From Symploca sp. SIO2E9 (GTDB lineage: Bacteria > Cyanobacteriota > Cyanobacteriia > Cyanobacteriales > Coleofasciculaceae), in assembly GCA_010692645.1 (NCBI GenBank), contig JAAHGS010000039.1, positions 1 to 50,053 on the forward strand: DNA of 50,053 nt, given 5' to 3'. The notes under the pieces are model-generated. The model was not told the origin of the DNA and ran no database searches. It saw only the letters and a list, made by a program, of their open reading frames with translations. Both the position numbers and the translations under genes were made by a program. The first letter of the stretch is position 1; every line of letters begins with the position of its first letter. Below, in pieces: positions 2,087 through 28,866 of this stretch.

Positions 2087-5000
2087 ATGATTGCTTCAGG
2101 GATTGATGCTGGTCTAGCACAACTCAAAGACAACGTAGACAACTTTGAAAAGGCTCTTATAGAGCTTATACAAGCAAAGAAAATGATGTCTGAAAAACCT
2201 AAAAACTTGGTGGATATCAACCACTTCAAGCAAAATCGCCAACCTAGTCAACTGCAACAAACTCCAATTGCCATTATCGGCATGGCATCTGTCTTTCCTC
2301 AAGCGGGAAATTTGCAGGAATACTGGCAGAACATCATTGATGAAGTGGATTGTATTACCGATGTCCCCCCTTCTTACTGGGATGTCGATGATTACTATGA
2401 CCCCGACCCCAGAAAACCTGACAAGACCTACTGCAAAAGGGGCGGATTCATCCCAGAAATTGACTTTAACCCCATGGAATTTGGGTTACCTCCCAATCTC
2501 CTGGAAGTAACTGATGTTTCACAGTTGCTATCACTAGTCATTGCCAAACGGGCAATGGAAGATGCCGGTTACGGTCAAACTCGGGACTTTAATCGAGATC
2601 ATACTGGTGTCATTTTAGGCGCTGCTGTGGGAAGGCAAATTGCCACTCCCTTTTCAGCTAGACTGCAATTTCCGATTTGGGAAAGAGCCCTCAAAAACAG
2701 CGGACTCTCCGACGAAGACACACAAAAGATTATCGAGAAAATCTCATCATCTTATGTGCAGTGGAATGAGAATGCTTTCCCTGGCATGCTTTCCAATATC
2801 GTTGCTGGCAGAATTGCTAATCGACTGGATTTTGGGGGAACCAATTGCACACTTGATGCAGCCTGTGCCAGCTCTCTAGCAGCCCTGAGAATGGCAGTCA
2901 CTGAGTTGCTCACAGGTCAGTGCAACATGGTACTAACCGGGGGTGTTGATATTGATAACTCGATCTTCGCTTACACCTGTTTTAGCAAAACCCCCGCTCT
3001 TTCCTTCAAACAACAGACTAGACCATTTGATGCTGAAGGCGATGGGATGATGATGGGTGAGGGCATTGGCATGATGCTTCTCAAGCGTCTGGCTGATGCC
3101 GAGCGAGATGGGGATAAAATCTATGCAGTCATCAAGGGAGTTGGCACTTCCAGTGATGGCAAATATAAGAGCATCTACGCCCCTCGTCCAGAAGGGCAAG
3201 TCAAAGCCTTAAATCGCGCTTATCAGGAGGCAGGCTTTTCTCCTGCAACTGTTGGTCTAGTTGAGGCCCACGGTACAGGTACCATGGCTGGAGATCCAGC
3301 TGAATTCAAAGCTATAAAACAAGTTTTTGGCGAAAACAACCCGAAAAAACAATATATTGCCCTCGGCAGTGTAAAATCGCAGATTGGACATACCAAAGCT
3401 GCAGCTGGTGCAGCGAGCTTAATCAAAGTTGCTTTGGCTCTGCACCACAAAACCTTACCACCTACAATCAACATTAATAAGCCCAATCCGAAACTGGGTA
3501 TTGAAGACTCACCATTCTACTTGAATACCACAACTAGACCCTGGATTCGTGCCGAAGGGGCACCACCGAGACGAGCAGGAGTCAGTTCTTTCGGTTTTGG
3601 TGGCACTAACTATCACATCGTTCTGGAAGAATATCAAGATGAACAGGATCAGGTCTATCGTTTAAACAAAACCCCCCAGCCAGTGCTACTACAGGCATCA
3701 ACACCTGAACAGTTGTTGAGCCAGTGCCAAGAACTTCTGGGTAAACTGCAATCTGAGGCTGGGGATAAGCACTATCAAGAACTGATTGATCAGTGTAAAT
3801 CTATAGAAATTCATCTCACTAGTTCTAGAGTCGGGTTTGTTGCCGATTCTCTGAGTGAGGCATGTAAAAAACTGCAAATTAGCATTGACTGGCTCCAAAA
3901 TAAACCCCAGTTGGAAGCATGGGAACATCCTCAAGGGGTGTTCTTCCGCAAAGTTGGCTTAGAGGTTCAGGGTAAAGTCGTTGCTCTATTTTCTGGTCAA
4001 GGTTCCCAATACCTAAATATGGGCCGGGAACTGGCAATTAACTTCCCTTATCTGCGGCAAGCCTACAGCTATATGGATAATCTGCTGCTGCAAGATAACC
4101 TCAAGCCCATATCAGAAGTGGTTTTCCCTAACCCTGTGTTTGAACCAGCTCAAGAAGCTGCCCAGCTCGCTCTATTGCAGCGTACAGAATATGCACAACC
4201 AGCTATTGGCTGTTTGAGTGCAGGCATGTACAAGCTCCTACAGCAGGCAGGATTTAAACCCGATTTCGTCGCCGGCCATAGCTTCGGAGAACTGACAGCT
4301 CTTTGGGCAGCAGAAGTTTTGAGTGACGAGGATTACTTGTTCCTAGTCAAAGCCAGAGGTCAAGCCATGGCCACGCCGGATGACCCCAAAGTTGATGCTG
4401 GAACCATGCTGGCGGTGAAAGGGGATGTCAGTAAGATTGAAGCCGTGGTTAAGAATTTCCCCCAAGTCACCATTGCTAATTGGAACTCTAATAAGCAGCT
4501 TGTCTTAGCAGGGGTCAAATCGGAAATAGAACGGTTGCAGTCAACTTTAAAAGAGCAGGGATATCATACCGTACCGTTACCGGTTTCAGCTGCTTTTCAC
4601 ACCTCCCTGGTTGCCCACAGCCAAGAACCCTTTGCCAAAGCAGTACTCTCAGTAACTGCTAAAAGCCCGAAAATCCCGGTTTACACCAATGTGACAGGGA
4701 AGCATTATCCAACTGAACTTCAAGCTATCCAAGAAAACCTACAGAAGCATCTGAGTAACCCGGTATTCTTCAAGCAAGAGATCGAAAATATCTATGCCCA
4801 AGGCGGTTATTGCTTCATTGAATTCGGACCCAAGAATGTTCTAACCAACCTGGTGAAGGATATTCTCAGCGATAAACCCCATCTAGCAATTGCCTTAAAT
4901 GCCAATCGCCAGAAAAATAGCGATCGCCAATTGCGGGAAGCTGTGATGCAGTTGCGAGTGGCCGGTTTGCCTTTGCAAACACTTGACCCCTATCAACAGT

Positions 5001-6463
5001 TGCAGCCAGTACCTGAAGCTGAAATGGATCCGAAACACAAGTTGTTGAATGTCCGCTTAAGAGGTACTAACTATGTCAGCGACAAAACTAAAAAGGCCTT
5101 TGAGAAAGCCTTGTATGACGGGTATCAGGTGAAAGTTGCTAGCCCTCAAACTGAGGCAACTGTAGCAGATACTAGAGAGGTTCTTGAAAAAGCCTTCCAA
5201 AAAGGTCATCACCAGCCATCGAGCCAACCCCAGTCTGAGGAAATTTCTGTGGTTCAATCGAGCTCGCCCTTAGCTACAACTAATACTTCTGCCAACACTC
5301 CTAAACCAATTCGGACTCAGCCAATGTCAACACCATCTGTTAACTACCAACGTGTTTTAGAAAGCTTTGAGTATAGCATTGCTCAGATTAATCAACATCA
5401 AGGTGAAACTATACAGGTTCACGGGCAGTATCTGAATCATCAGATGGAATATGCCCGCATCTTCTTTCACCTCATGCAGCAGCAGGCTAGCTTATTTGTT
5501 AACGGCAATAGTGCTAATCAACCGGTGGAGACACAGTTAGCTGTACTCGCTAGTCTAGAGCGCAGCATGATTAAGTTTCAGGAGCATCAAGCTGGTACTT
5601 TGCGTGTTCATGAGCAAACCCTCAACCATCAAGTTGAATACGCCAAAAATCTATTCCGACTGACGCAGCAACAGTGTCAGATGCTGATGGGCGGTGCTGC
5701 GATTGAGTACCACTTACAACCAACCGAGTCTGTAGCCAAGGTTGCCGCAATTGAGGATAATTCCAGTTCTACTGCTCTAAGTGCACCTATCTCTGAGCTA
5801 GTAATGAATCCTGAGCAAGTTACCAGCAATGGTCATAGCTCACCAGCAGAGCCAGCAATTTCGGTGCCCTCAACACCACTACCTCTGGTTATGGATAAAG
5901 TAGCCCCCAGCCCTGAGAAAGTATTTAGTAACGGCAATGGCTCCCAACCAGTTTCAGAAAGCCCCGTACCAGCGACACGAGCTATGGTTATGGAAACTTT
6001 AGCTCCCAGCCCTGAGAAAGCTTTCAGTAATGGCAATGGTCATAGCAATGGTAATGGTCATCACAATGGCAATGGCTCCAAAACCGTCGCCGAAGTTACT
6101 GTCCCTGCAACAGTAGAACCTGTAAAAACAGAGCCTGTGAAAACGGTAACGGAGACTCCCGCAGTCGCCATCGACATTGACATTGATAACCTCAAAGATA
6201 CTTTGTTAGAGGTGGTTGCTGACAAAACTGGTTATCCCCCTGAGATGCTGGAACTAGATATGGATATGGAAGCTGATTTGGGGATAGATTCAATTAAGCG
6301 GGTGGAAATCCTAGGGGCAATACAAGATAAATTCCCTGGTTTGCCCAAGCCGGATCTTGAAGAGCTCGCAGAAATAGAAATGCGCACTCTGGCTCAAGTC
6401 ATTGATTTTATCAAAGAACTCGCACAAGGGGGTTTAAAAAAAAAAGAACTGCAGCCAGCCTGA
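2087..6463 (+). CDS. Iterative polyketide/lipid synthase, KS-AT-ACP (PfaA/HglE type)
   Basis: This synthase condenses and loads acyl units for a long acyl chain. The ketosynthase spans about residues 58-515 with an intact triad: Cys260 (DAACASS), His395 (EAHGTGT) and His435 (GHTKAAAG). The acyltransferase spans about 630-930 with Ser732 in GHSFGE and a His near 838 (AFHTS). A linker holds two copies of a roughly 55-residue Gln/His-rich helical repeat (about 1086-1140 and 1148-1203), then a low-complexity NGNGHSNGNGHHNGNG stretch. One ACP ends the protein, with phosphopantetheine Ser1402 in LGIDSIKR. PfaA-type relatives usually carry several ACPs followed by a ketoreductase; here there is one ACP and the frame closes 18 bases after a run of ten A (6436-6445). 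The next frame continues the family, so this may be a frameshifted longer protein. The start is supported by GGAGG 7 nt upstream. Hgl-like rather than EPA/DHA synthase is inferred from context. Confidence 0.93.
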   Translation: MIASGIDAGLAQLKDNVDNFEKALIELIQAKKMMSEKPKNLVDINHFKQNRQPSQLQQTPIAIIGMASVFPQAGNLQEYWQNIIDEVDCITDVPPSYWDVDDYYDPDPRKPDKTYCKRGGFIPEIDFNPMEFGLPPNLLEVTDVSQLLSLVIAKRAMEDAGYGQTRDFNRDHTGVILGAAVGRQIATPFSARLQFPIWERALKNSGLSDEDTQKIIEKISSSYVQWNENAFPGMLSNIVAGRIANRLDFGGTNCTLDAACASSLAALRMAVTELLTGQCNMVLTGGVDIDNSIFAYTCFSKTPALSFKQQTRPFDAEGDGMMMGEGIGMMLLKRLADAERDGDKIYAVIKGVGTSSDGKYKSIYAPRPEGQVKALNRAYQEAGFSPATVGLVEAHGTGTMAGDPAEFKAIKQVFGENNPKKQYIALGSVKSQIGHTKAAAGAASLIKVALALHHKTLPPTININKPNPKLGIEDSPFYLNTTTRPWIRAEGAPPRRAGVSSFGFGGTNYHIVLEEYQDEQDQVYRLNKTPQPVLLQASTPEQLLSQCQELLGKLQSEAGDKHYQELIDQCKSIEIHLTSSRVGFVADSLSEACKKLQISIDWLQNKPQLEAWEHPQGVFFRKVGLEVQGKVVALFSGQGSQYLNMGRELAINFPYLRQAYSYMDNLLLQDNLKPISEVVFPNPVFEPAQEAAQLALLQRTEYAQPAIGCLSAGMYKLLQQAGFKPDFVAGHSFGELTALWAAEVLSDEDYLFLVKARGQAMATPDDPKVDAGTMLAVKGDVSKIEAVVKNFPQVTIANWNSNKQLVLAGVKSEIERLQSTLKEQGYHTVPLPVSAAFHTSLVAHSQEPFAKAVLSVTAKSPKIPVYTNVTGKHYPTELQAIQENLQKHLSNPVFFKQEIENIYAQGGYCFIEFGPKNVLTNLVKDILSDKPHLAIALNANRQKNSDRQLREAVMQLRVAGLPLQTLDPYQQLQPVPEAEMDPKHKLLNVRLRGTNYVSDKTKKAFEKALYDGYQVKVASPQTEATVADTREVLEKAFQKGHHQPSSQPQSEEISVVQSSSPLATTNTSANTPKPIRTQPMSTPSVNYQRVLESFEYSIAQINQHQGETIQVHGQYLNHQMEYARIFFHLMQQQASLFVNGNSANQPVETQLAVLASLERSMIKFQEHQAGTLRVHEQTLNHQVEYAKNLFRLTQQQCQMLMGGAAIEYHLQPTESVAKVAAIEDNSSSTALSAPISELVMNPEQVTSNGHSSPAEPAISVPSTPLPLVMDKVAPSPEKVFSNGNGSQPVSESPVPATRAMVMETLAPSPEKAFSNGNGHSNGNGHHNGNGSKTVAEVTVPATVEPVKTEPVKTVTETPAVAIDIDIDNLKDTLLEVVADKTGYPPEMLELDMDMEADLGIDSIKRVEILGAIQDKFPGLPKPDLEELAEIEMRTLAQVIDFIKELAQGGLKKKELQPA
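6436..6445 (+). other. A10 homopolymer at the end of the KS-AT-ACP frame (candidate slippage or frameshift site)
   Basis: Ten consecutive A lie just after the ACP. With nine A the reading frame runs without a stop through 6446-6536 (residues such as PRAPVRLKFLPKPD) and straight into the ketoreductase N-half at 6537. The break is therefore a -1 nt event at the homopolymer. It could be an assembly error, a true mutation, or transcriptional slippage. Confidence 0.75.
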
Positions 6464-6536: not shown

Positions 6537-7202
6537 ATGTTGGATTTCACTTTACCTGAAAACCACATTTGCCTACTGAGTGATGATGGTTCCCAGACTA
6601 CATCTACTTTAGTTGAGTCTCTGACGGAGCGTGGTTGGAAACTAGTGGTACTAAGTTATCCCCAATCTATAATTGCCCAACAGTCACCTTTACCTGAAGG
6701 TGTCAAGCGAGTAGAACTCAAAGAGCTAAGCGAGGCTCATTTGCAACAACAGTTAGCGACAATTACAGAGAACTACGGCCCCATTGCTGCTGTTGTGCAT
6801 CTCCATCCTTGTTTTCAGGGAACTAAAAGCGAAGGAATCCGTTTTCTGGAAGCAGAAAAAGATATTCTCAAGCAGGTCTTTTTCCTAGCTAAACACCTTA
6901 AGCAATCTCTTAATCAGGCTGCATCTCAAGGACACAGTTGCTTTGTAAGTGTTACTCGCCTTGATGGAGAATTCGGTTTTACCGGCAAAGTTAATTATAG
7001 TCCGATCAGCGCTGGACTATTCGGATTGACAAAAACCCTCAATCATGAATTTAAATCCGTGTTTTGTAGGGCAATTGACCTCAGTCCAGAGGTAAATTCT
7101 GAACTCTCAGCCCAATACATTATTTCTGAATTACATGACCCCAATTATCATCTAGCTGAAGTTGGGTATGGTTCTCAAGGAAGAACTACTCTGATTAGCT
7201 AG
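6537..7202 (+). CDS. Ketoreductase N-terminal (structural) half, probably detached from the KS-AT-ACP protein
   Basis: The 221 residues match the non-catalytic Rossmann-like subdomain that precedes a catalytic ketoreductase in PfaA/HglE-type synthases: ENHICLLSDDG near the start, then AAVVHLHP, GHSCFVSVTRLDG and GLFGLTKTLNHE. It has neither the NADPH-binding glycine motif nor the catalytic Ser/Tyr; those are in the next gene. The ATG at 6537 has no good Shine-Dalgarno. The same frame is open upstream to the A10 run at 6436 and encodes family-like sequence, so independent translation from 6537 is doubtful and fusion to the KS-AT-ACP protein is the likelier ancestral state. It stops at TAG 7200-7202, three bases before an inverted-repeat element. 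Confidence 0.7.
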   Translation: MLDFTLPENHICLLSDDGSQTTSTLVESLTERGWKLVVLSYPQSIIAQQSPLPEGVKRVELKELSEAHLQQQLATITENYGPIAAVVHLHPCFQGTKSEGIRFLEAEKDILKQVFFLAKHLKQSLNQAASQGHSCFVSVTRLDGEFGFTGKVNYSPISAGLFGLTKTLNHEFKSVFCRAIDLSPEVNSELSAQYIISELHDPNYHLAEVGYGSQGRTTLIS

Positions 7203-7204
7203 TT

Positions 7205-7383: not shown

Positions 7384-9117
7384 ATGAGTCGAGAAGTTCA
7401 AATTAATTCCTCATCTGTTTTTCTCGTCAGTGGTGGTGCTAAAGGAATTACAGCTAAATGTGCGATTCAATTAGCTAAGCGTTATCAATGCAAATGGATT
7501 TTACTTGGTCGCTCAGAGTTTTCTGGAGATGAGCCGTCTTGGGCTAAGGATTGTTTTGATGAATCCGAATTGAAAAAACGGATTATGCAATACTTTCTTG
7601 CTCAAGGGAAAAAGCCTGTCCCTATGGAAATACAAAGGGTATACAAAGAAATTACTTCTAGGCGAGAAATTCAGAACACGCTGCAAGCTTTTGAGCAAGT
7701 AGGAAGTCAGGCAGAATATTTGAGTGCAGATGTAACTGATGTGAATGTTCTGCAAGAAAAGTTGCCTACTGTAGTTGAACGCCTTGGTCTAATTACGGGT
7801 ATTATTCACGGAGCTGGTAACTTAGCTGATAAGTTAATTGAAAAGAAAACAGAGCAGGATTTTGACAAGGTTTATAATGCCAAAATCAAGGGTTTAGAAA
7901 ATCTGTTGCAGTGCGTACCTGTCAATCAACTTGATTACTTAGTTCTATTTTCTTCTGTTGCTGGTTTCTGTGGTAATGCGGGGCAAGCTGACTACGCTCT
8001 CGCTAATGAGATTCTTAATAAATCGGCTCACCTGGTTAAACAGCACAATCCCAGTTGCCATGTAGTATCAGTTAATTGGGGTCCTTGGGATAGTGGCATG
8101 GTGACTCCGCAATTAAAGAAAGCTTTTGCAATGCGTGGTATTGAGGTAATTCCGATTGATGTCGGTACGCAAATGCTGGTTGAGGAGCTTGAAGCCAAAC
8201 ATCAGGGCACGGTGCAAGTGGTAATTGGGAGTACAGTGCCGATGCCAGCGAAGGATCCAGATTCTGAGCTGCGTACTTATCATATCCATCGCCAATTAAG
8301 GCTCGACAATAATCCATTTTTGCATGACCACGTAATTGCTGGTTCTCCGGTTCTGCCCTTTACCTGTGCTATTTCTTGGATGGCTAGTACTAGCGCCCAA
8401 CTCTATCCAGGTTATCAATGTTTTTGCTGCGAAAATACTAAGGTTTTAAAGGGCATTGTCTTTGATGAAAATCTGGCAAGTGACTACACTTTAGACGTTA
8501 AGGAAATTGCTAAAACTAAGGAAGAAATTCAGTTAGAAACGAAGATTTGGAGTAAAAATACACAGGGCAAAGTTCGCTATCATTTCAGTACTCAGGTTAA
8601 GCTGCGGCGAGAAATTCCAGAGGCTCCTGTTTATGATCGATTAAATCTTGATCCGGATAATCAAATTGCTGGTTATCGGGAAGCATTTTATCAAAATGGA
8701 CCAGAATCTTTATTCCATGGATCTGCTTTTCAGGGAGTAGAAAAAGTTTTAAATATCAGCCCTGAAAAAATTACTGTGCAATGTCTGGTAGAACGCCTGG
8801 GAGAAAAGCAGCAGGGACAATTTCCTATCTATAATATCTGTCCTTATATTGCTGATGTTCAGACTCATCCTGTATGGCTATGGTTACAGCATTTTCATCA
8901 GTCAGGCTGTTTACCGGCAAAATTAGGTAAATTTGAACAATTCGCTGCAGTTCCCCATGGAAAACCTTTCTATACTTCTATGGAATTTAACTCTAAGACT
9001 GAGACGAGTTTGAATGTTAATGTGATTACTCATGATCAGCAAGGAAAAATTTACTCGCGTATTAGTGAAGCACAGGCAACTATTTTTCCGCTGACGGCAA
9101 TTCACGGTGCAGTTTAG
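7384..9117 (+). CDS. Ketoreductase (catalytic half)-dehydratase protein of the lipid synthase
   Basis: The protein reduces beta-keto acyl-ACP and then dehydrates the beta-hydroxy product. Residues about 10-290 form an SDR-type ketoreductase: the NADPH loop SGGAKGITAK (16-25), LLGRSE, SADVTD and IIHGAGN, with catalytic Ser190/191 (FSSVAG), Tyr204 and Asn208 (QADYALANE). Residues about 300-570 form a double-hotdog dehydratase with His316-x3-Gly320-x4-Pro325 (HVIAGSPVLP) and a second motif around PESLFHGSAFQGV. The structural half of the ketoreductase is encoded just upstream, so the two polypeptides probably have to pair. The start is backed by a strong AAGGAGG a few bases before ATG 7384, which argues for separate translation. 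All catalytic residues I can check are present. Confidence 0.9.
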   Translation: MSREVQINSSSVFLVSGGAKGITAKCAIQLAKRYQCKWILLGRSEFSGDEPSWAKDCFDESELKKRIMQYFLAQGKKPVPMEIQRVYKEITSRREIQNTLQAFEQVGSQAEYLSADVTDVNVLQEKLPTVVERLGLITGIIHGAGNLADKLIEKKTEQDFDKVYNAKIKGLENLLQCVPVNQLDYLVLFSSVAGFCGNAGQADYALANEILNKSAHLVKQHNPSCHVVSVNWGPWDSGMVTPQLKKAFAMRGIEVIPIDVGTQMLVEELEAKHQGTVQVVIGSTVPMPAKDPDSELRTYHIHRQLRLDNNPFLHDHVIAGSPVLPFTCAISWMASTSAQLYPGYQCFCCENTKVLKGIVFDENLASDYTLDVKEIAKTKEEIQLETKIWSKNTQGKVRYHFSTQVKLRREIPEAPVYDRLNLDPDNQIAGYREAFYQNGPESLFHGSAFQGVEKVLNISPEKITVQCLVERLGEKQQGQFPIYNICPYIADVQTHPVWLWLQHFHQSGCLPAKLGKFEQFAAVPHGKPFYTSMEFNSKTETSLNVNVITHDQQGKIYSRISEAQATIFPLTAIHGAV

Positions 9118-9118
9118 C

Positions 9119-17832: not shown

Positions 17833-19198
17833 TCTGGAAAAACGGCTGGCAAAGCTTTCGCCCTTAAAAAGACAACTGCTGTTGCTGCAGCTGAAAAAGG
17901 AAACCGGGGTTGTGCCACGAAGAAGTATGTCGGCTATAGAGTCACCAATAGCCCTGGATTTGAAAGCTGAAGCTGTCTTAGATCCTAGTATTTGTCCCGA
18001 AGCTTTGCTACCTTATAAACCTGTAACTGAGCCTCTTTACATCTTGTTTACTGGGGGAACAGGCTTTTTAGGAGCTTTCTTAATTGAAGAGCTTTTACAT
18101 AGTACTCAGGCAGATATCTATTGCTTGGTACGGGCTGCTGATGCAGTTCAAGGTAAGAAGCGATTACAACAAAACCTGGAAAAATATAAAGTTTGGAATG
18201 ATGATTTTAGCTCTAGAATTATACCAGTTCTAGGAGATTTATCAAAACCAAAGTTCGGTCTTGACGCCCAAAAATTCCAAGCGCTGGCTGGCAAAATTGA
18301 TACTGTTTATCACTCAGCAGCATTGTTGAATTACGTTTATCCCTATTCAGCAATGAAACAGGTTAATGTTCTGGGAACACAAGAAGTTTTGAGATTTGCT
18401 TGCCAAGTTAAACTCAAGCCCGTCCATTATGTTTCCAGCGTGGCAGTGTTTGAATCTTCTGTTTATGCTGGTAAGGTCTTGACAGAAGAGGACTGTATAG
18501 ATGAAACTGAAGGAATGTTTCTGGGCTACTCTCAGACTAAATGGGTTTCTGAAAAGTTAGTCGAGATTGCTCGCGATCGCGGTTTACCAGTTGTTATCTA
18601 TAGACCTCCTTTTATTGCAGGTCACAGCCAAACAGGTGTCACCAATACAGATGATTTTATCTGCTTGATGTTCAAAGGCTGTATTCAAATGGGAATTGTT
18701 CCCGATTTGGACTATCTGTTAGATGCTTCTCCTGTAGATTATGTGAGTCAAGCAATTGTTTATTTATCGAATCAGAAACAATCGCTAGGAAAAGTTTTTC
18801 ACTTGCAGCAGCCCCAACCCATGCACTTGAGATGGTTTGTTGATTGGGTTCGCTCTTTTGGTTATCCAATTCAACTGGTTTCCTATGAACAATGGCAAGA
18901 AGATTTAAAAGGTTACATAGGTTCTCCAGAACATCCTTTGTATACACTACTGCCTTTCTTGTTTGAGAAGTGGTCTAGTGAGCAACTGACTATCCCTGAG
19001 TTGTATTTGCAAAAAAGAAGACCCAAAATCAGCTGTCACCAAACCCTTGATGCTCTCTTTGGTTCTGGCATTGTCTGTCCACAACCAAATTCAGAAGTAC
19101 TCGATATTTACTTATCCTACTTCATCGAAAGTGGTTTTCTGAGTGTTGATGACCTCAGGAACATCTCAAAAAAACTGGCTGTATTGAGCGAAGTATAG
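17825..19198 (+). CDS. Thioester reductase (HglB-like, NAD_binding_4 type)
   Basis: This enzyme releases the chain from the carrier by NAD(P)H reduction of the thioester to an aldehyde or alcohol. A helical N-terminus ([20 protein letters not shown]) is followed by a Rossmann domain with TGGTGFLG (76-83), [33 protein letters not shown] and the catalytic Tyr235-x3-Lys239 (YSQTK). The block [16 protein letters not shown] is typical of the reductase domains of carboxylic acid reductases and HglB. Heterocyst-glycolipid clusters use such a reductase to make long-chain fatty alcohols, which is the basis for inferring a fatty alcohol product here. Active-site residues look intact. Confidence 0.92.
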
Positions 19199-19249
19199 TA
19201 AGCAAGATTTTTGTTGAAGTCAATTTCTAACAGAGGCGAAAAAGATTTT

Positions 19250-19555
19250 ATGAGCCCACTAACTATGGATCCTAATGTCGTAACCACTCTTACCGCAGAA
19301 GCTATTCAAGACTGGCTGGTTACCAATATTGCTGAACAGCTGGGAGTCACACCTGATGAAATCGATGTCCAAGCGCATTTAGATAGCTTGGGGCTAGATT
19401 CAGCGCAAGGTATGATCATTGCTAGCAAAGGAGAAAATTTTCTGGGATTCCCGATTTCTCCCCTGCTATTGTTGCATTACCCTACAATTGAAACTCTTTC
19501 TGAGCGCTTATCTGAAGAAATTGCAGGTTCGGAATCAGAATTTTTGGAGATTTGA
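19250..19555 (+). CDS. Second free-standing acyl carrier protein
   Basis: This 101-residue paralogue of the ACP at 17410 also has its phosphopantetheine serine at position 51 (LGLDSAQ) and shares the NIAEQLG and HYPTIE segments, but lacks the long C-terminal tail. A TTG at 19211 would add 13 residues; ATG 19250 with AGAGGCG upstream lines up with the first ACP and is preferred. Having one carrier on each side of the thioester reductase suggests different partners, or different chain intermediates, but which is which cannot be told from sequence. Confidence 0.88.
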
Positions 19556-19641: not shown

Positions 19642-19769
19642 AGATTCTTTCCCTTTGTTCCCTTTCACCTCGCCGGTTAGCACCTGCAATTGGACAAAAA
19701 AAACCTTCTGTCCCCTGCTCTGTGCCGTTCTACCTTTCCCTTTGATAACTACTGGAGAATTTGAGAACA

Positions 19770-21623
19770 ATGAACGCATCTGAACTGTTAACCAACCTCA
19801 CACAACAAGGTATCCAGTTGTGGGCTGATAATGAAAAACTAGGTGTTCGTTCCCCACGGGGAGTTATGACACCAGAGCTGCGCCAAGAACTAGCTAAGCA
19901 CAAGCCAGAAATTTTGGCATTTCTACGTGGTAATGACCTCTCTGATTGCTCTACTTCTACCTCTCCTAGTGATGAACTAACTCTGCAAACTATTGGTCGC
20001 TTAATTGGAGGATTTGGCAGTCAATCAACCACTGAGTATAAGCAACCCATTGTTGATCCTCAAGTAATGGCAAGCAAGCTCAAAGTTGTGTTTAGACCTT
20101 TGCCGAAGGGTTACAATAATCAAAGCATTATTAAATTTAGAGAAGAATTAGAACTCAAACTGCGCAACTATGGGGTGCAAATTGAACCTTGGGAACTAGC
20201 AACAACCGAATTTCACTATGACATCAAGATTCCCTTCTTTAACTTCAAAAAAACTTTTAATACCAGAGTAGTCAAGGCTGGGACTGATGCCGTAATTGAT
20301 ATTGAAAGACCTCCTTCTTTAATTAGTAAAGCTAAAGAATTTGCTGCTGAGAGACTGTATGAATTTTACTCTCACTTTATTCTGAAGAATCAAAAATTAT
20401 CCGTTACCAGAATTGCCACATTGATCGGTTGGGCTGTAGAACATGCAGCTAAATATATTGAAGACCCAACCAATACTCAGGTGATTACCCTCACCGATTT
20501 AGATCCAGAGTTTACTAATCCCCAAATCCCCTACCAACAGAAAATAGGACTTGGCTTAAACACTCTAGTCAGAACCTTTTCTGAAATTGTGATTGGAGTG
20601 TCTAATGACAAAATCTCTATCTTAAATATGAATCTCTCAGATTCTATTTTTCCTCAAGATGAATTAGATGGCTTTGTTTTAAAATCGCTAATACCAAAAA
20701 TATTTGTCCCCATAGCTCCTGTTCTCCTGAATCGGTTTGAATTAGGGCAATACGATCCTCAGGCATCTGTTTATGCAGCTAGCTTGGTAACTTTGAGTAA
20801 AGAACTGGCACCAACAGGTCTATTTCCTCCTGGTTTCAAGTTGAGTGAATTGATTAAAAGAAAGTCCCATAGAGATATTATTAATGTAATTGTTAATGGC
20901 AGAACTGGTGTCTCTTATGGCTTTGTAGCCTATGCAGAACCACCGCAATACATTGGTGCTAAGGAGATAACTGAGAATGAGTGGGAAGGTCTAGCCACTG
21001 TTAAGGGATTTAGTAATGATCAAGTACGTCAAAATGAAATTAATAGACGCTATGTCAAACTCAAAATAGGAACAGAATATGTATTTAAACAGATACCAGA
21101 TATTTGGCTAGTAAGTGCTCGTTCAGGCTCGAATAAAACTAATTTGAGTCTGGATAATGACATTGTGAGAATTGGTTTGAGAGATAGATTATTCCTGCAA
21201 TTACCTCAGGGAATTGACCAGGCAAAAGTAGACATTAAACCTTCTTACGATCTTTATGTAATGCTGGGCATGGCTCTTTCTGCAGCTTTGTATACACCAG
21301 AATTAATTAGAGATGGTGCGCCCATGGTTCACTTCCACGGCTATCCTGCCCGCGACTGGTTTCAAGATAATGAATATTGTGTGGGTGTCCACAATCCTTC
21401 AGTACCTTGTGGCACCTATGAATCAGGAGTGTTTAACTTTCTAGGTATTCATAGTTTGTCGTCTCAATCTGATGGCAAAATAGCCTTAGTAAGTTTGGTA
21501 GAACCAGACCACGGCACTAATTTTATCGCACCTAATTTGGAGTATTTAGTAGCAAGACTCAAAGCTGGCTGCCAACAGGGAAAAATTGAACTAGGTGGCA
21601 AACATTTTGTTTCTCTAAAATAA
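19770..21623 (+). CDS. Unknown 617-residue protein with an N-terminal TubC-type docking domain
   Basis: Residues 1-53 (MNASELLTNLTQQGIQLWAD, later ELAKHKPEILAFLR) match the TubC N-terminal docking domain, which in NRPS/PKS lines mediates subunit docking. I do not recognise the remaining 560 residues. They show no carrier, condensation, adenylation or SDR motif and no clear membrane helix. Stretches rich in His, Cys and aromatic residues stand out near the C-terminus (MVHFHGYPARDWFQDNEYC, then NPSVPCGTYESGVFNFLG), which could be a ligand or active site. A docking domain on a protein without synthase domains suggests an accessory enzyme recruited to the synthase. The start is ATG 19770 rather than TTG 19761, on spacing from GGAG (19754-19757). 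A 13-bp hairpin follows the stop. Confidence 0.85.
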   Translation: MNASELLTNLTQQGIQLWADNEKLGVRSPRGVMTPELRQELAKHKPEILAFLRGNDLSDCSTSTSPSDELTLQTIGRLIGGFGSQSTTEYKQPIVDPQVMASKLKVVFRPLPKGYNNQSIIKFREELELKLRNYGVQIEPWELATTEFHYDIKIPFFNFKKTFNTRVVKAGTDAVIDIERPPSLISKAKEFAAERLYEFYSHFILKNQKLSVTRIATLIGWAVEHAAKYIEDPTNTQVITLTDLDPEFTNPQIPYQQKIGLGLNTLVRTFSEIVIGVSNDKISILNMNLSDSIFPQDELDGFVLKSLIPKIFVPIAPVLLNRFELGQYDPQASVYAASLVTLSKELAPTGLFPPGFKLSELIKRKSHRDIINVIVNGRTGVSYGFVAYAEPPQYIGAKEITENEWEGLATVKGFSNDQVRQNEINRRYVKLKIGTEYVFKQIPDIWLVSARSGSNKTNLSLDNDIVRIGLRDRLFLQLPQGIDQAKVDIKPSYDLYVMLGMALSAALYTPELIRDGAPMVHFHGYPARDWFQDNEYCVGVHNPSVPCGTYESGVFNFLGIHSLSSQSDGKIALVSLVEPDHGTNFIAPNLEYLVARLKAGCQQGKIELGGKHFVSLK

Positions 21624-21706: not shown

Positions 21707-21798
21707 TTGTTCCAAGTCAAAAACATCAATTCAAAAGTCAAAACTGAATAATTCTTACTCTTGACTTTCCCAACTTGTGCAAAAATTATATTGATGCG

Positions 21799-22791
21799 AT
21801 GAACCTTAACAACAAAACCATTCTAATCACCGGGATTGGCAGTTTTATCGGCTGGCGTGCTGCTGAGTTAGCCCGAGAACGGGGGATGAAGGTTCGAGGA
21901 CTACAGCGCTCCAAAGATAAAGTAAAAGTGTTACAGCAACACCTAGGTGCTGAAGTCATTGTTGGTAGTGTCAACAATCCTGTTGCGGCTAGAAAAGCTT
22001 GCCAGGGAGCAACAATAGTTCTACATACAGCAGGTGTTACCCAGGAAAATGCCTCTTTAGAGCAATTTCGGGCGGTGAATGTTGGCGGGACAATTAATAT
22101 GGCTAAAGTCGCTATGCATTCTGGAGTCAAAGCCTTTGTGCATCTTTCTAGCAGTATGGTCTACGGATTTAACTATCCTGATCATGTCACAGAAAGAGGT
22201 CCACTTTGTCGAGAAGATAATCCTTACTGTCAGATAAAAATAGAAGCTGAACAGAAGCTTTTGCAACTGAATACCCCGCGCAATTTTGGCATCATTATTA
22301 TTAGACCAGGAGATGTTTACGGACCAGGAAGCATACCCTGGACAATTCGACCGTTGTTATTAATGCGCAAAAGATCATTCTTGTTAGCCAACGGTGGACA
22401 AGGTGTAATGAACCATGTTTACATCGACAATCTAATTGAGGCAATTTTCCTTGCCTTAGAAAAAGAGGCATACGGAGAAATTTTTAACATCACTGATGGA
22501 CAAGAAACCTCCTGGAAAGAATATTTTACGCGCCTAGCTGAAATTGCTGATCTACCCGCACCTTTGTCTATGCCAGCAAGTTTAATCAGGTTACCAATTC
22601 AACTGCGCCGCTTAGGACAGAAACTTCTTGGCGAGAATATCGATACTTTACCAGCGTCCGTAGATTTGCTGACTCGCCCCTATGCTTATTCTGTTGAGAA
22701 AGCTCAAAGTCAGCTTAGCTACAAACCCAAAATATCCCTGGAAGAGGGATTGAAGCGGACGCAGGAATGGCTTAGAAAAGCTGACATCTAA
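21799..22791 (+). CDS. Extended SDR (NAD-dependent epimerase/3-beta-HSD-like), catalytic residues intact
   Basis: This protein of about 330 residues is a clear paralogue of the one at 16306 along its whole length: TILITGIGSFIG, VKAFVHLSSSMVYGFNY, IIIRPGDVYGPGS and NHVYIDNLIEA. Unlike that paralogue it keeps Tyr and Lys of YxxxK (NPYCQIK), so it should be an active NAD(P)-dependent oxidoreductase, perhaps on a keto or hydroxy group of the lipid. A TTG at 21775 opens the frame 8 codons earlier; ATG 21799 aligns with the paralogue start and is preferred, though no strong Shine-Dalgarno is visible for either. Reaction and substrate are not known. Confidence 0.87.
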   Translation: MNLNNKTILITGIGSFIGWRAAELARERGMKVRGLQRSKDKVKVLQQHLGAEVIVGSVNNPVAARKACQGATIVLHTAGVTQENASLEQFRAVNVGGTINMAKVAMHSGVKAFVHLSSSMVYGFNYPDHVTERGPLCREDNPYCQIKIEAEQKLLQLNTPRNFGIIIIRPGDVYGPGSIPWTIRPLLLMRKRSFLLANGGQGVMNHVYIDNLIEAIFLALEKEAYGEIFNITDGQETSWKEYFTRLAEIADLPAPLSMPASLIRLPIQLRRLGQKLLGENIDTLPASVDLLTRPYAYSVEKAQSQLSYKPKISLEEGLKRTQEWLRKADI

Positions 22792-24280: not shown

Positions 24281-25453
24281 ATGATTTTATCTATCCCCAT
24301 AGCTTGGCTACAACTAATTCACAAAAGAGTCCGTTTCCTGGCAACTTTAGCAGGTTTGGCTTTTATTGTGATTCTGCTGTTTATGCAGCTTGGTTTCCAA
24401 GATGCTCTTTATGCCAGTGCTACTCAAGTGCATAACAGTTTACGAGGAGACTTATTTGTCATCAGTCCACAATATATATCCTTGACATCTCAGCAAAGTT
24501 TTCCTAGAGCACGTCTGTACCAAGCTCTAGGCTATGAAGGAGTGGATTCAGTCACGCCATTGTATCATGAATTTGGCAAGACAAAAAGTATTGATACGGG
24601 ACAAAAAAATCCGATATTTGTTTTTGGAATTGGTTTGGATTCAGTGACTTTTGATTTGCCTGAAATTAATCAAAACTTAGATAAACTCAGAATCCCAGAC
24701 CAAGCCTTATTTGACCGCAATTCTCGACCAGAATTTGGTCCAGTTGCTGAGAAATCGGAACAAGAAGAAGTCGAAATTGAAGTATCTTATTTCAATGATT
24801 TAACACTTGCTAGTAGGTTAAAAATAGGTGGTTTATTCACTCTTGGGGCTTCTTTCGGAGTTGACGGCAATTTAATTGTCAGTCAATCAACTTTTTTGAA
24901 TATTTTTGATTACCGTAAAGCCGATTTTATAGATATTGGTTTAATTAAGCTTAAGCCTGGTGCTGATATCAAAAAAGTGCAGGCGATCCTTGAGGCACAT
25001 TTGCCCAAAGACGTCAAAATTCTTACCCGCCACGAATTTAGTGAAGTTGAAAAAAGCTATTGGAACATCAGAACACCAATTGGCTTTGCCTTTCAGTTAA
25101 TGGTTACAATGGGTTTTGTTATTGGTGTTGTTGTTGTTTATCAGGTTCTCTACAGCAACATTTCCAGCCATTTGGTTGAGTATGCAACTCTCAAAGCTAT
25201 GGGGCATACCCAAAACTACTTGCTGAGAGTGGTATTTCAGCAAGCTGTAATCTTAGCTGTTTTAGGTTATATACCAGGATTTGCTTTGTCTTTAGGTCTA
25301 TATGATCTTGCCGAGACTGGCACCCATTTGCCATTTTTTATGCACTTACATCAGGCATTAGTGGTGTTATTTTCGACAATTTTCATGTGTTCTATTTCCG
25401 GTTTTCTTGCCATGAACAAACTGCGTTCTGTAGATCCAGCTGACATTTTCTAG
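24281..25453 (+). CDS. devC: DevC-type ABC exporter permease
   Basis: This inner-membrane permease has the MacB/FtsX-like layout: one membrane helix at the N-terminus (about 18-40, LAGLAFIVILLFMQLG), a large periplasmic domain of about 220 residues, and three C-terminal helices (about 265-385). LVEYATLKAMGHTQNYLLRV is a family-typical cytosolic segment. The 390-residue length is normal for DevC. It lies between devB (107 bp upstream) and devA (24 bp downstream), giving the usual devBCA order. Confidence 0.93.
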   Translation: MILSIPIAWLQLIHKRVRFLATLAGLAFIVILLFMQLGFQDALYASATQVHNSLRGDLFVISPQYISLTSQQSFPRARLYQALGYEGVDSVTPLYHEFGKTKSIDTGQKNPIFVFGIGLDSVTFDLPEINQNLDKLRIPDQALFDRNSRPEFGPVAEKSEQEEVEIEVSYFNDLTLASRLKIGGLFTLGASFGVDGNLIVSQSTFLNIFDYRKADFIDIGLIKLKPGADIKKVQAILEAHLPKDVKILTRHEFSEVEKSYWNIRTPIGFAFQLMVTMGFVIGVVVVYQVLYSNISSHLVEYATLKAMGHTQNYLLRVVFQQAVILAVLGYIPGFALSLGLYDLAETGTHLPFFMHLHQALVVLFSTIFMCSISGFLAMNKLRSVDPADIF

Positions 25454-25477
25454 AATTTTAGATAACTGACTAGACTA

Positions 25478-26179
25478 ATGCATCCAGAACATATTGTCTC
25501 TATTCGCAATCTTAATCAATACATGGGGTCTGGTTCATTCCGCCAGCAAATATTGTTTAAGATCAATTTAGAAATTAAACCTAGGGAAATTGTGATTATG
25601 ACTGGGCCTTCTGGCTCAGGTAAAACTACTTTGCTGACTTTAATTGGTGGTTTACGTTCTGTTCAGGAAGGAAGTCTTAAGTTTCTCGATTGGGAGCTTC
25701 ATGGAGCTTCTCAACAAAAACTAGTGCAAGTTCGTCGCCATATTGGTTACATTTTTCAGGCTCACAACTTGCTAGATTTCTTATCAGCTCGGCAGAACGT
25801 ACAAATGTCAATGGAATTGTGGAAAAATGTTCCTGAAAAGGAGGCAAAAGCTAGATCAGAAGCTGTACTAGAAGCTGTGCAATTAGGCGGCAAAGTCAAT
25901 TCACTACCTCAGCAGCTTTCAGGGGGACAAAAGCAACGGGTAGCTATTGCCCGCGCTTTAGTCAGCAACCCCAAATTAATTTTAGCTGATGAACCTACTG
26001 CTGCCTTAGACGGCAAAACTGGTCGAACAGTTGTAGAGCTAATGCAAAAACTTGCTAAGGAACAGGGATCTGCTCTCTTGATTGTGACTCATGACAACCG
26101 CATTTTAGATGTTGCTGATCGTATCATCACTATGGAGGATGGTTATCTTCAACAAAAAGTTCTCACGAATAAAGCATAG
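25478..26179 (+). CDS. devA: DevA-type ABC exporter ATPase
   Basis: This is the ATPase of the exporter: Walker A GPSGSGKT (43-50), Q-loop in [11 protein letters not shown], signature LSGGQ (147-151), Walker B LILADEP (167-173) and a switch His in VTHDNR. The 233-residue length is typical. It is the last gene of devBCA; a 512-bp gap follows before the carbamoyltransferase. Confidence 0.95.
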
Positions 26180-26691: not shown

Positions 26692-28866
26692 ATGTCGCGA
26701 GTTTTTGGAAGATATGGACCGGCTCATCCCTGGCTAGGTAAGTTGGTATTTGAAACTACCAAACCGCTGATGAAAACTCTCTTTGCCGCTCGTAATTTCT
26801 ATCACATGGATAGTCGCTATACCCGTGAGCGCATTGTTTCGATGCAAGCCAAGCTGAATAGGAAAGAGCGAGTTTATCTGATCGGAATTGGGCCTAGTGG
26901 TCATAATTCCGGAGTTGCCCTAATTGAAGTTTCTTTGGAGCAAGGAATCAAGCTCATTTGTAATGAGGAAGAAGAAAGGTACACCGGAATTAAACACTAT
27001 GCCGGTTATCCAAAATATAGCGTTGATTCAGTTAGTAAGCGCATGAGAGAAATCGGTATTGAACCGAAGGATATTCATGCTTGCCTTGCTAGTTGGAACT
27101 ATATAGATTTTGTTCCCTTCGGTTTGCGTGCAGTTTGTGAACATCTACCCTTGAGTTTATCTCTTTCCCTGCCTTCGTCTTCGCAAAAGTTTAACCATAT
27201 TCATATTCAAAAGGCTGGTGAAGTTCCTCAACGTCTGGGCAAACAACTGGGTTTAGATGGACCAATGCCAATTATCGGCATGTGCCACCACGACAATCAT
27301 GCCTATTTCTCCTATGGCGTTTCTCCTTTTAACCGTAGCCAAGAGCCAGTGATGGTTACTGTACTCGATGGCTTTGGTGATAATGGCTCAATATCACTTT
27401 ACCTTGCAGAAAATAACCAGCTCAAGCGTTTGCGTAGTAATGATAGCATGATGGACTCGCTGGGCATACTCTACAGCATGATAAGTTCTACCCAGGGCGG
27501 TTGGACTACATTAAGTAGCGAAGGGCGCTATATGGGTGCTACTGCCTGGGGCAATAATAACCGCCTCACCAATCCCTACTATCGACAACTGCGCCAGCTA
27601 ATTTATTTTGGCAATGAAGGTCAAGTTTACCTCAATCGTGCAATGACCAATTGGCACCAATGGGGTCAACTAAGACCTTACAATAGTATTCTCAAAGAGA
27701 TTCTCGGAGAGCCTATCCCTGCCAAAGATATGTGGAATCCCGATGCTATTTTGCGGGTTGAGGATGTTACACACTCACCAATTACCCAGGAGCGCTTGGA
27801 TAAGGCAGCTGCTACTCAATTAGTGTTTGAGGATGTTTTATTCCATATAATCGACTATCTAATTCGTACAACTGGAAGCAACAAACTAGTTATGACTGGG
27901 GGAACCGCTCTCAACTGTGTTGCCAACATGCGGTTGCTGGAACATTTTGATCAGTCTTACTATCAGCGCTATTTCGGCAAAAATACCCATTTACACCTCT
28001 GGGTGCCGCCTACTCCTGGTGATGCTGGTGTGGCGATGGGGGCAGCTTATAATTTTGCTCTGACTAACGGCGTGCCAACTGGTGAGAAGCTACAACATGC
28101 CTTCTACTGTGGCACTCCTCCCAGCACTGCCAGTATTCGTCAAGCCCTTAAAACCACTGAGGAAATTGCTTACATGTCCTTAGGCAATGTGAATTGCCCC
28201 CAGCAGCGAGAAGAGATTGCTGATTTAGCCGCTTATATTATTGCTCAGGATGGTGTGTTGGGATTTTTCCAAGGTGCAGCAGAAACTGGACCACGAGCAC
28301 TTGGTCACCGTAGTATTGTTGCCAATCCCTGCAACCCTGATAGCCTGGAAAATATTAATGAGTTAGTCAAGTTTCGGGAAAGGATTCGCCCACTGGCACC
28401 CATGGCAACCTACGAAGCAGCCCAGCGTTACTTTGAACTCTCACCAGGTGCTAGTGATGACAACTATAACGCCTACAACTATATGGTACTGACTACTAGG
28501 GCTCGTCCGGAGAGCTATCAGCTGATCCCAGCAGTGATTCACCACGACGGTACATCCCGAGTTCAGATTGTCAGGAAGAGTGATTCTTTCACTTATGCTT
28601 ATCTCAAAGCTATGGGGCGTCGATTGGGTGTAGAGGTTTCTGTTAACACCTCTTTAAACGTAGGTAGTCCAATCGTTCAGAATCCGGAACAAGCTTTGCA
28701 GGCGCTGAAGCGCTCTAAAGGGATGAGTGGTTTAATCATGATTGGGGCTGAGGGGAATGTCTTTGTAGCTTGGCATGACGTTCTAAGTCCACCCAAAGAT
28801 GCTGGGGAGTGCCTACTAGCTTGGTATCGCCAGTGGCAAGCTGAGTCAGCAGTAGTTCTAGTATAG
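26692..28866 (+). CDS. O-carbamoyltransferase (NodU/CmcH/TobZ family)
   Basis: The family transfers a carbamoyl group from carbamoyl phosphate, through carbamoyl-adenylate, to a hydroxyl of a small molecule. After an N-terminal extension of about 65 residues the first domain opens with LIGIGPSGHNSGVALIE. The metal-site motif HHDNHA lies at 199-204, then VTVLDGFGDNGS and VMTGGTALNCVANMRLL. The second domain has GFFQGAAETGPRALGHRSI and FRERIRPLAPM, the conserved YrdC-like active-site block. Length (724) exceeds the usual 570-620 because of the extension. Placed after devBCA on the same strand, it suggests the lipid or its head group is carbamoylated; that link is an inference. The TAG stop overlaps the end of a MITE-like element. 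Confidence 0.92.
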   Translation: MSRVFGRYGPAHPWLGKLVFETTKPLMKTLFAARNFYHMDSRYTRERIVSMQAKLNRKERVYLIGIGPSGHNSGVALIEVSLEQGIKLICNEEEERYTGIKHYAGYPKYSVDSVSKRMREIGIEPKDIHACLASWNYIDFVPFGLRAVCEHLPLSLSLSLPSSSQKFNHIHIQKAGEVPQRLGKQLGLDGPMPIIGMCHHDNHAYFSYGVSPFNRSQEPVMVTVLDGFGDNGSISLYLAENNQLKRLRSNDSMMDSLGILYSMISSTQGGWTTLSSEGRYMGATAWGNNNRLTNPYYRQLRQLIYFGNEGQVYLNRAMTNWHQWGQLRPYNSILKEILGEPIPAKDMWNPDAILRVEDVTHSPITQERLDKAAATQLVFEDVLFHIIDYLIRTTGSNKLVMTGGTALNCVANMRLLEHFDQSYYQRYFGKNTHLHLWVPPTPGDAGVAMGAAYNFALTNGVPTGEKLQHAFYCGTPPSTASIRQALKTTEEIAYMSLGNVNCPQQREEIADLAAYIIAQDGVLGFFQGAAETGPRALGHRSIVANPCNPDSLENINELVKFRERIRPLAPMATYEAAQRYFELSPGASDDNYNAYNYMVLTTRARPESYQLIPAVIHHDGTSRVQIVRKSDSFTYAYLKAMGRRLGVEVSVNTSLNVGSPIVQNPEQALQALKRSKGMSGLIMIGAEGNVFVAWHDVLSPPKDAGECLLAWYRQWQAESAVVLV

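What the first reader, a model, noticed from the sequence alone, without database searches (positions are those of the whole stretch)
2087..28866. A heterocyst-glycolipid-like synthase cluster with its own DevBCA exporter and an added carbamoyltransferase
The set of KS-AT-ACP, KR-DH, KS-CLF-AT, PfaD reductase, thioester reductase and DevBCA matches the logic of heterocyst glycolipid making and export. Here it is joined by a NodU/CmcH carbamoyltransferase, two SDRs, two free ACPs and an unknown TubC-docking protein. No glycosyltransferase is seen in the window. This points to a long-chain alcohol with a carbamate rather than, or besides, a sugar head: a lipid class I do not know as described. 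The product is inference; the gene content is direct.
Basis: partly seen in the sequence, partly recalled or inferred. Interest (0 to 1): 0.85.

Follow-up and report, generated by a model that had tools for sequence, protein, structure and literature searches.

The report
Heterocyst-lipid-type cluster with carbamoyltransferase
A cyanobacterium carries a gene cluster like the one that builds the oxygen-proof lipids of heterocysts, but without the usual sugar-adding enzyme and ending instead in an enzyme that adds a carbamate group, so it may make and export a long-chain lipid of a kind I could not find described.

Summary
Window 2087-28866 encodes one hgl/PUFA-synthase-type island: KS-AT-ACP, a KR part, KR-DH, KS-CLF-AT, PfaD, ACP, thioester reductase, two SDRs, DevBCA and a NodU/CmcH-type carbamoyltransferase. 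A congener, inferred to be Symploca sp. SIO3C6, has the same genes in the same order. About 28 kb (1352-29417) is 89-92% identical, the flanks are not shared, and CmcH is under purifying selection (dN/dS 0.068), so CmcH belongs to the unit. Three Nostocales islands that I take as canonical hold homologs of every synthase gene, DevB, DevC and the second SDR (probably HgdA), but neither CmcH nor TubC620. hgl islands without hglT in non-heterocytous cyanobacteria are already published (PMC11804610). New here are CmcH, clustered with PfaD in 2 of the 11 genomes found to have both, and an ACP-TubC module. The 'unknown TubC protein' is a conserved family (53 loci): docking domain, middle domain, class II aldolase-like fold. 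Its neighbouring carrier has a matching docking tail in 50 of 50 loci where one was assigned. A carbamoylated, exported long-chain lipid is the best reading, but no chemistry was tested and the combination is known from one genus only.

The parts
1352..2086 (+). conserved upstream region of the island (leader/promoter region)
   Evidence: ~90% identity to the sister genome begins at 1352 (a weaker piece, 82%, at 1091-1191); no GTAN8TAC (NtcA-type) box in 1079-2086
2087..6463 (+). HglE-type KS-AT-ACP, 1458 aa
   Evidence: dN/dS 0.081
6537..7202 (+). KR part, 221 aa, matches PfaA 1757-1976; part of the large HglE ORF in three Nostocales islands
7384..9117 (+). KR-DH, 577 aa
9453..14441 (+). KS-CLF-AT (PfaC/PfaB-like), 1662 aa
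14534..16195 (+). PfaD-type enoyl reductase, 553 aa; the only PfaD found in this genome at E <= 1e-30
16306..17274 (+). SDR1, epimerase/3beta-HSD type, 51% identical to SDR2
17305..17832 (+). ACP175, overlaps the thioester reductase gene by 8 bases; ACP and TER are one ORF in the Nostocales islands (HglB-like)
17825..19198 (+). thioester reductase (TER), 457 aa
   Evidence: dN/dS 0.041
19211..19555 (+). ACP114 with C-terminal acidic-hydrophobic docking tail (ends SESEFLEI)
19761..21623 (+). TubC620: TubC_N (beta-hairpin) docking domain 8-56, middle domain ~101-320 (CoaB-like fold, weak), class II aldolase-like domain ~332-620; the ATG at codon 4 is the likelier start
21775..22791 (+). SDR2, counterpart of the SDR beside DevB/DevC in Nostocales islands (HgdA-like by gene order)
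   Evidence: paper PMC6692557
22926..24173 (+). DevB/HgdB membrane fusion protein
24281..25453 (+). DevC/HgdC permease
25478..26179 (+). DevA ATPase
26692..28866 (+). NodU/CmcH-type carbamoyltransferase, 724 aa, divergent (25-32% to the other cyanobacterial homologs over 300 residues or more, apart from the congener's), motifs HHxxHA 199 and GPRALGHR 533 present
29161..29481 (+). small conserved ORF of unknown function, last gene of the shared block (identity ends at 29417)

Best explanation
A hgl-type (PUFA-synthase-like) island in a nifH-bearing, Symploca-like (by recall non-heterocystous) cyanobacterium. HglE, the KR/DH proteins, KS-CLF-AT and PfaD build a long, largely reduced acyl chain with a retained beta-hydroxyl. 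The HgdA-like SDRs may set interior hydroxyl or keto groups, or prepare a sugar nucleotide. The ACP175-TER pair (a split HglB) releases the chain as an aldehyde or alcohol. A parallel carrier, ACP114, docks through its C-terminal tail onto the docking domain of TubC620, an aldolase-like enzyme that works on the carrier-bound chain or joins a small unit to it. CmcH, encoded behind DevBCA, carbamoylates a hydroxyl of the product (chain or head group), and DevBCA exports it to the outer envelope. Shown: gene content, shared synteny, selection, the pairing of docking domain and tail in sequence, no HglT ortholog found. Inferred: every chemical step, and that CmcH acts on this lipid.
For: Gene content and intact motifs. 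A congener has the same genes in the same order. The block 1352-29417 is 89-92% identical and the flanks are not; dN/dS is 0.04-0.19 across all 16 genes tested, CmcH 0.068. DNA next to CmcH in the congener lies on another contig in the window's genome (C101:76521-81704), so CmcH and the small ORF stayed with the island while the surroundings changed. Three Nostocales islands hold homologs of every synthase gene, ACP-TER, DevB, DevC and SDR2, followed by glycosyltransferases in the two whose next genes I scanned with Pfam; here CmcH follows DevBCA instead. No HglT ortholog found in the genome. One PfaD, so one such island. Precedent: in Nostoc CAVN2 a carbamoyltransferase gene, CabL, distinguishes the carbamidocyclophane cluster from the otherwise similar cylindrocyclophane clusters, matching carbamate in the product (PMC4728517 passages).
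Against: CmcH is separated from devA by 512 bp, the longest gap in the cluster, so it may be its own transcription unit. It is found in such an island in one genus only. NodU-type enzymes also act on sugars, antibiotics and other substrates (recalled; the PDB relatives include antibiotic enzymes). No NtcA-type box was found, and promoter and terminator matches are about or below the number expected by chance. Related non-heterocytous strains without hglT still glycosylate their diols (PMC11804610). No product is known.
Confidence: 0.55

Rival explanations
1. The island makes an ordinary HG analog (C24-type 1,3-diol or its glycoside, with an unlinked glycosyltransferase) and CmcH carbamoylates its sugar head group or is a minor decoration, much as NodU decorates a lipid-linked oligosaccharide (recalled).
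For: HG analogs, free and glycosylated, in non-heterocytous strains whose islands lack hglT (PMC11804610). [quoted passage not shown] The genome has 17 matches to a GT4-type glycosyltransferase elsewhere.
Against: No glycosyltransferase family was hit in the block, and three glycosyltransferases of a Nostocales island find nothing in it. ACP114-TubC620 is not part of the three Nostocales hgl islands read.
Confidence: 0.25
2. CmcH is an independent gene next to the island, acting on an unrelated substrate.
For: 512-bp gap. Of the nine other genomes found to have both a PfaD and a CmcH-like protein, eight have them on different contigs or more than 200 kb apart, and in the ninth, G094, they lie ~28 kb apart.
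Against: Same order in two species, with strong purifying selection and loss of flank synteny just outside CmcH and the small ORF. The window CmcH is a lineage of its own (25-32% to the other cyanobacterial ones over 300 residues or more).
Confidence: 0.15
3. The island is a specialised-metabolite cluster (for example a phenolic or resorcinol-type lipid) rather than an envelope-lipid island, as may be true of other TubC620-bearing clusters.
For: TubC620-bearing loci elsewhere carry a weakly AurF-like protein (22.5 bits, under its cut-off of 29.6; CylC-like by recall), beta-propeller proteins, KAS III-like, type III PKS-like and PapA-like genes.
Against: None of those tailoring families was hit in the window ORFs scanned, apart from a sub-threshold ACP_syn_III match inside the KS-CLF-AT protein. 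The window keeps TER, the HgdA-like SDR and DevB/DevC as the Nostocales hgl islands do.
Confidence: 0.1

Closest known systems
hgl island of heterocytous cyanobacteria (heterocyst glycolipids), Anabaena PCC 7120 type
   Same: HglE/KR/DH/KS-CLF-AT/PfaD/ACP-TER synthase, HgdB-HgdC-type exporter parts and an HgdA-like SDR (compared with three unnamed Nostocales genomes, not with Anabaena 7120 itself)
   Different: no HglT ortholog found; ACP and TER split; devA within the unit; second SDR, ACP114-TubC620 module, CmcH and a small ORF added
hgl islands of non-heterocytous cyanobacteria making HG analogs (C24 1,3-diols), PMC11804610
   Same: hglT absent, ABC exporter genes in the island; the PfaD tree places the window outside the branch (98/94) that holds the three Nostocales islands used here as canonical
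   Different: carbamoyltransferase and TubC620; the main text of that paper has no match for 'carbamo' or 'docking'; its supplements were not seen
carbamidocyclophane cluster with CabL, Nostoc CAVN2 (PMC4728517)
   Same: a carbamoyltransferase gene added to an otherwise known polyketide cluster, giving carbamate in the product
   Different: paracyclophane scaffold; the gene is called putative and was found by bioinformatics in that paper
TubC_N (beta-hairpin) docking domain proteins and their C-terminal short linear motifs (PMC9113145)
   Same: docking domain at the N-terminus and a matching tail on the neighbouring carrier protein
   Different: attached to an aldolase-like domain; [quoted passage not shown]
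class II aldolase/epimerase fold (FucA, RhaD, AraD; also pyruvic oxime dioxygenase, NovR)
   Same: predicted fold of TubC620 332-620 (best Z 13.6, rmsd 2.9, 176 aligned); invariant D497, H524-x-H526, H584 spaced like the metal site (spacing recalled)
   Different: no match to a Pfam aldolase family at E <= 5 in 34 members; fused to docking and middle domains

Membership tests
hgl island (PMC11804610: homologs of at least 7 of 19 Anabaena 7120 island genes, clustered) | clustered synthase genes HglE, KR, KR-DH, KS/CLF/AT, PfaD, ACP-TER | tested here: met
   matched at 51-72% to islands of three Nostocaceae-type genomes, G097, G191, G129; names mapped by content, Anabaena 7120 itself was not compared
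hgl island | hgdB/hgdC exporter parts and hgdA-like SDR | tested here: met
   DevB 48-49%, DevC 55-58%, SDR2 58-63%
heterocyst glycolipid pathway proper | HglT glycosyltransferase in island or genome | tested here: not met
   best hit in genome 31%, against 76-78% between Nostocales; query is a GT4 gene of the G097 island, HglT by position and recall; its matches in G191 and G129 read through one stop each, not examined
heterocyst glycolipid pathway proper | heterocyst-forming host | tested here: inconclusive
   same genus as a genome inferred to be Symploca sp. SIO3C6, held non-heterocystous by recall; nifH present; morphology not testable
NodU/CmcH carbamoyltransferases | Carbam_trans_N plus Carbam_trans_C, metal and nucleotide motifs | tested here: met
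   the meaning of the motifs is recalled
NodU equivalog | NF041651 score over cut-off | tested here: not met
   102.8 bits, cut-off 1000
DevBCA exporter | TIGR02971, TIGR01185, TIGR02982 over cut-off, adjacent | tested here: met
beta-hairpin docking domain / short linear motif pair | TubC_N domain and C-terminal acidic-hydrophobic tail on the partner carrier | tested here: met
   TubC_N in 34 of 34; tail in 50 of 50 assigned carriers of 53 TubC620 loci, 0 of 15 other carriers, 2 of 688 other ORFs (the pattern was chosen after seeing the tails, and a stricter second pattern gave 45 of 50, 0 of 15, 1 of 688); binding not tested
class II aldolase/epimerase superfamily (for TubC620 C-terminal part) | fold | tested here: met
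   Z up to 13.6, 176 residues, on a model of mean pLDDT 74.9; Foldseek E 8e-4 at best, TM-score 0.48 by target length
class II aldolase/epimerase superfamily (for TubC620 C-terminal part) | detectable sequence homology to a curated family | tested here: inconclusive
   no aldolase Pfam match at E <= 5; no aldolase in the PDB profile search
class II aldolase/epimerase superfamily (for TubC620 C-terminal part) | metal-site residues and aldol activity | not testable with these tools
   D497, H524, H526, H584 invariant in 34 sequences; geometry and activity not examined

The most novel reading that the evidence does not exclude
The island makes a new class of exported envelope lipid. A hgl-type long-chain hydroxy chain on ACP114 is handed to TubC620, a docking-domain aldolase-like enzyme that joins a small (for example triose-type) unit by a carbon-carbon bond, giving a head group without a glycosyltransferase, and CmcH then caps it with carbamate before DevBCA exports it. 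TubC620 would be a carrier-docked class II aldolase-like enzyme, a combination I did not find in the passages read, used by many cyanobacterial lipid clusters.
Probability: 0.12. Interest if true: 0.85.

Novelty: new variant of a known kind. Interest (0 to 1): 0.55.

Why it matters
Heterocyst glycolipids are used as biomarkers, and their origin from older, non-heterocyst lipids was proposed in 2025 (PMC11804610). An island of that kind in which the sugar-adding step seems replaced by a carbamoyltransferase would show that the same chain-building and export machine carries different head groups, and it gives an exact mass-spectrometry prediction to test. The TubC620 family, marked in Pfam only by its docking domain, gets a predicted fold, a predicted carrier partner and a short list of testable chemistries in some 50 cyanobacterial genomes.

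Tried and rejected
Not supported: recent transfer of the island from canonical Nostocales hgl islands. In the PfaD tree the window and its congener fall outside the branch (98/94) that holds those islands, four same-family copies of Moorena type (that name is my guess, no call names them) and seven TubC620-bearing rows; their own nearest grouping is weak (84/49), the tree is of one gene and its root is the midpoint. Transfer between TubC620-bearing lineages is not excluded. In one search two rows (L124 = G094 and L170 = G116) were labelled as lacking TubC620 although they have it; with the labels mended the counts are 48 rows with and 17 without, and 4 changes against a shuffled mean of 15.3, 0 of 500 shuffles as low (a first try at this, stopped with an error).

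Rejected: CmcH as NodU proper (NF041651 far below cut-off). Rejected: G094 as a third case of CmcH in the island; its CmcH-like gene (29-32%) lies about 20 kb beyond the DevC end with other ORFs between, which were not annotated.

Led nowhere: an NtcA-type box upstream of the island or before CmcH (none); promoter and terminator scan (8 promoter-like against 7.5 expected, 1 terminator-like against 3.6); a complete empty site of the island in the window's genome, as only one flank of the congener's island could be placed on C101, one piece of that flank maps to C351, and the other flank was not found in the 40 kb of C101 read. The middle domain of TubC620, folded alone, gave a poor model (pLDDT 66); its best match was a CoaB-type protein (Z 8.1) and Foldseek had nothing at E <= 0.001, so the CoaB-like reading is weak even though CoaBC also came up for the whole model (Z 10.8). 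A profile search of the PDB with the middle domain found nothing at E <= 5. A first version of the docking-tail count failed because my carrier pattern missed nearly all carriers; one search replaces it. No carrier was assigned in 3 of the 53 TubC620 loci: L017, L019 and L054. Literature searches for a carbamoylated hgl-type lipid or an aldolase in such a cluster showed no such paper in their listings; one search was too wide to be a test. Most subscription papers and all supplements were out of reach, so absence in print is only as wide as those searches. The supplementary table of PMC11804610 that lists the 35 non-heterocytous genomes could not be read, so I cannot say whether this genome is among them. 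CmcH and TubC620 were sought in 291 class and 20 family genomes, and close relatives of TubC620 in one pattern-based scan, not in every genome held.


Full report
OBSERVATION. The window is contig C317 of a 7.75 Mb, 383-contig genome. Active-site motifs are intact: KS cysteines in HglE and in the first KS of the 1662-aa protein, loss of the cysteine in its CLF, GHSFGE and GYSLGE in the two AT domains, ACP serines, HVIAGSPVLP in the DH and YALAN in the KR. Motif meanings are recalled. DevB, DevC and DevA each score over the cut-off of the Dev-specific models. The carbamoyltransferase carries both Pfam domains, aligns with GdmN, novobiocin carbamoyltransferase and TobZ and keeps HHDNHA at 199 and GPRALGHR at 533.

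EXTENT OF THE UNIT. A scan of named genomes with the 620-aa TubC protein returned Symploca sp. SIO3C6 at 91%, and 52 further loci, nearly all Nostocales, at 58-69%. Comparing its 54-kb stretch with the window, DNA identity of 89-92% runs from 1352 to 29417 with gaps of up to about 280 bases and stops on both sides apart from short pieces. Sixteen genes have dN/dS between 0.041 and 0.186; CmcH 0.068, with dS 0.455 (Nei-Gojobori counts in a script). DNA that flanks CmcH in G306 lies on contig C101 in the window's genome, away from the island. So the island, CmcH and the small ORF kept together while the surroundings changed. Only one flank could be placed.

WHAT KIND OF ISLAND. Islands of three genomes of family f6 (G097, G191, G129; taken as Nostocaceae), which I take as canonical from their content, were read. 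They have HglE with the KR part in the same large ORF, KR-DH, KS/CLF-AT, PfaD, then ACP and TER in one ORF, and on the other side DevB, DevC and an SDR 58-63% identical to the window's SDR2. None has a CmcH or TubC620 match in the 40 kb read. Beyond the SDR come a GT2 gene and a second GT2-type gene in G097 and G191, and in G097 a GT4 gene that is likely HglT (by position, recalled), with 76-78% matches close by in the other two genomes. From gene order (hgdB-hgdC-hgdA) the SDR is likely HgdA; [quoted passage not shown] The window thus has every synthase part, a split ACP+TER, DevBCA and two HgdA-like SDRs (51% to each other), but no HglT ortholog was found in the whole genome (best 31%) and no glycosyltransferase in the block. 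It has one PfaD at E <= 1e-30, so one such island. nifH is present.

WHAT IS ALREADY KNOWN. A 2025 study of about 3,600 cyanobacterial genomes reports hgl islands in 35 of 2,279 cyanobacteria outside the heterocytous clade, all without hglT, and finds C24 1,3-diols, free and glycosylated, in two such strains (PMC11804610; parts 1-5 of 8 of the text read, plus passages). So a hgl-type island without hglT in a Symploca-like organism is not a surprise. That paper's main text has no match for 'carbamo' or 'Symploca'; its supplements were not available to me.

HOW RARE IS THE CARBAMOYLTRANSFERASE. In 291 genomes of the class, 42, the window's own included, have a CmcH-like protein at E <= 1e-20; apart from the window's own, identities are 26-40%, the higher values over part of the protein. 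In the family, 12 of 20 genomes match (own included) at E <= 1e-15, and only the congener is close (93%; the rest 31-45%, the highest over short stretches). In a tblastn of the fetched loci the others reach 25-32% over 300 residues or more. PfaD was searched in 44 genomes and found in 24. Eleven of these 24 also have a CmcH-like protein. The two lie in one cluster only in G000 and G306; in G094 they are about 28 kb apart with a different CmcH type, and in the other eight they are on other contigs or more than 200 kb away, with fragmented assemblies a caveat. A useful precedent is the carbamidocyclophane cluster of Nostoc CAVN2, where the presence of CabL is described as a striking difference from the otherwise related cylindrocyclophane clusters (PMC4728517, passages).

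THE TUBC PROTEIN. TubC620 is a family, not an orphan. Twenty of 291 class genomes (the window's included) have a full-length member, 54-66% identical in the other 19, and one search lists 53 loci. Most of these lie beside hgl-type or other PKS genes in the flanks held. It is absent from the three canonical-type islands read, and in the family only G000 and G306 have it full length. It has DevBCA close by in G094, G195, L020, L024 and L046 as well; none of these shows a CmcH match beside the exporter in the stretch held. The carrier protein just upstream ends in a short acidic-hydrophobic tail in 50 of 50 loci where a carrier was assigned (of 53), against 0 of 15 other C-terminal carriers and 2 of 688 other ORFs of the same loci (the pattern was set after looking at the tails). 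This is the pattern expected for a short linear motif that docks on a beta-hairpin docking domain (PMC9113145, passages), and TubC620 begins with that domain in 34 of 34 members. In the window ACP114 has the tail and ACP175 does not, so the two free ACPs probably serve different partners: ACP175 the TER, ACP114 TubC620. The predicted structure (mean pLDDT 74.9) matches class II aldolases and epimerases over residues 332-620 (Z 13.6, rmsd 2.9, 176 aligned). Asp497, His524, His526 and His584 are invariant in 34 sequences and are spaced like the metal ligands of that superfamily (spacing recalled). The same fold also hosts oxygenases such as NovR, so the chemistry is open. There is no sequence-level support for the aldolase reading from Pfam or the PDB. 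The middle part is undecided.

MECHANISM. The most likely course is: chain building by HglE, KR, DH, KS-CLF-AT and PfaD; adjustment of oxygen groups by the HgdA-like SDRs; release by TER; work of TubC620 on an ACP114-bound chain; carbamoylation by CmcH; export by DevBCA. Only the parts list, the docking-tail pairing in sequence, the shared synteny and the selection are shown. That CmcH acts on this lipid rests on position, co-conservation and the CabL precedent. A 512-bp gap before CmcH speaks for some independence. A sugar is not excluded.

VERDICT. Confirmed as an observation, partly supported as an interpretation: a new variant of a known kind of island, with a testable new lipid and with a docking-aldolase-like protein family that reaches well beyond this window.

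Noticed in passing
window 33168-37052: A 1294-aa protein combines CBM2, an expansin-like pair (DPBB_1 and a weak Expansin_C match, under its cut-off), Calx-beta repeats and a family 9 glycoside hydrolase: an expansin-cellulase fusion in a cyanobacterium.
   Followed up: no
window 29912-31943 (- strand): A 2OG-Fe(II)/AlkB-like oxygenase next to a 459-aa TfuA protein (NF033432 over cut-off); no YcaO family was hit in the 29 window ORFs scanned, and the TfuA C-terminal half is unassigned.
   Followed up: no
window 43194-45031: A GmrSD_N-domain protein overlapping a HEPN (MAE_28990-like) protein: looks like a small defence or toxin-antitoxin-type pair.
   Followed up: no
window 40966-42838: Three Uma2-family genes in tandem, plus a Uma2 fragment at 29541-29864 just beyond the island.
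   Followed up: no
L112 (G306:C46), positions about 14208-14316 of the locus: A repeat of about 105 bp, with more than 20 matches in the window's genome, sits between the flanking genes and the island in the congener; it may mark how the island moved.
   Followed up: partly
L003, L004, L006, L011, L012, L029, L030, L053: TubC620 clusters of other cyanobacteria carry weakly AurF-like, beta-propeller, KAS III-like, halogenase-like (by looking at the sequence) and glycosyltransferase genes, so the same ACP-TubC620 pair serves quite different clusters.
   Followed up: partly
G178:C1:2267552-2269181 (L155): The PfaD gene a few kb from TubC620 in one genome of family f6 is broken by several stops: a decaying island.
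   Followed up: no
window 49971-50053: The end of the window matches, several times over, the congener's intergenic stretch between KR-DH and KS-CLF-AT: a shared short repeat.
   Followed up: no
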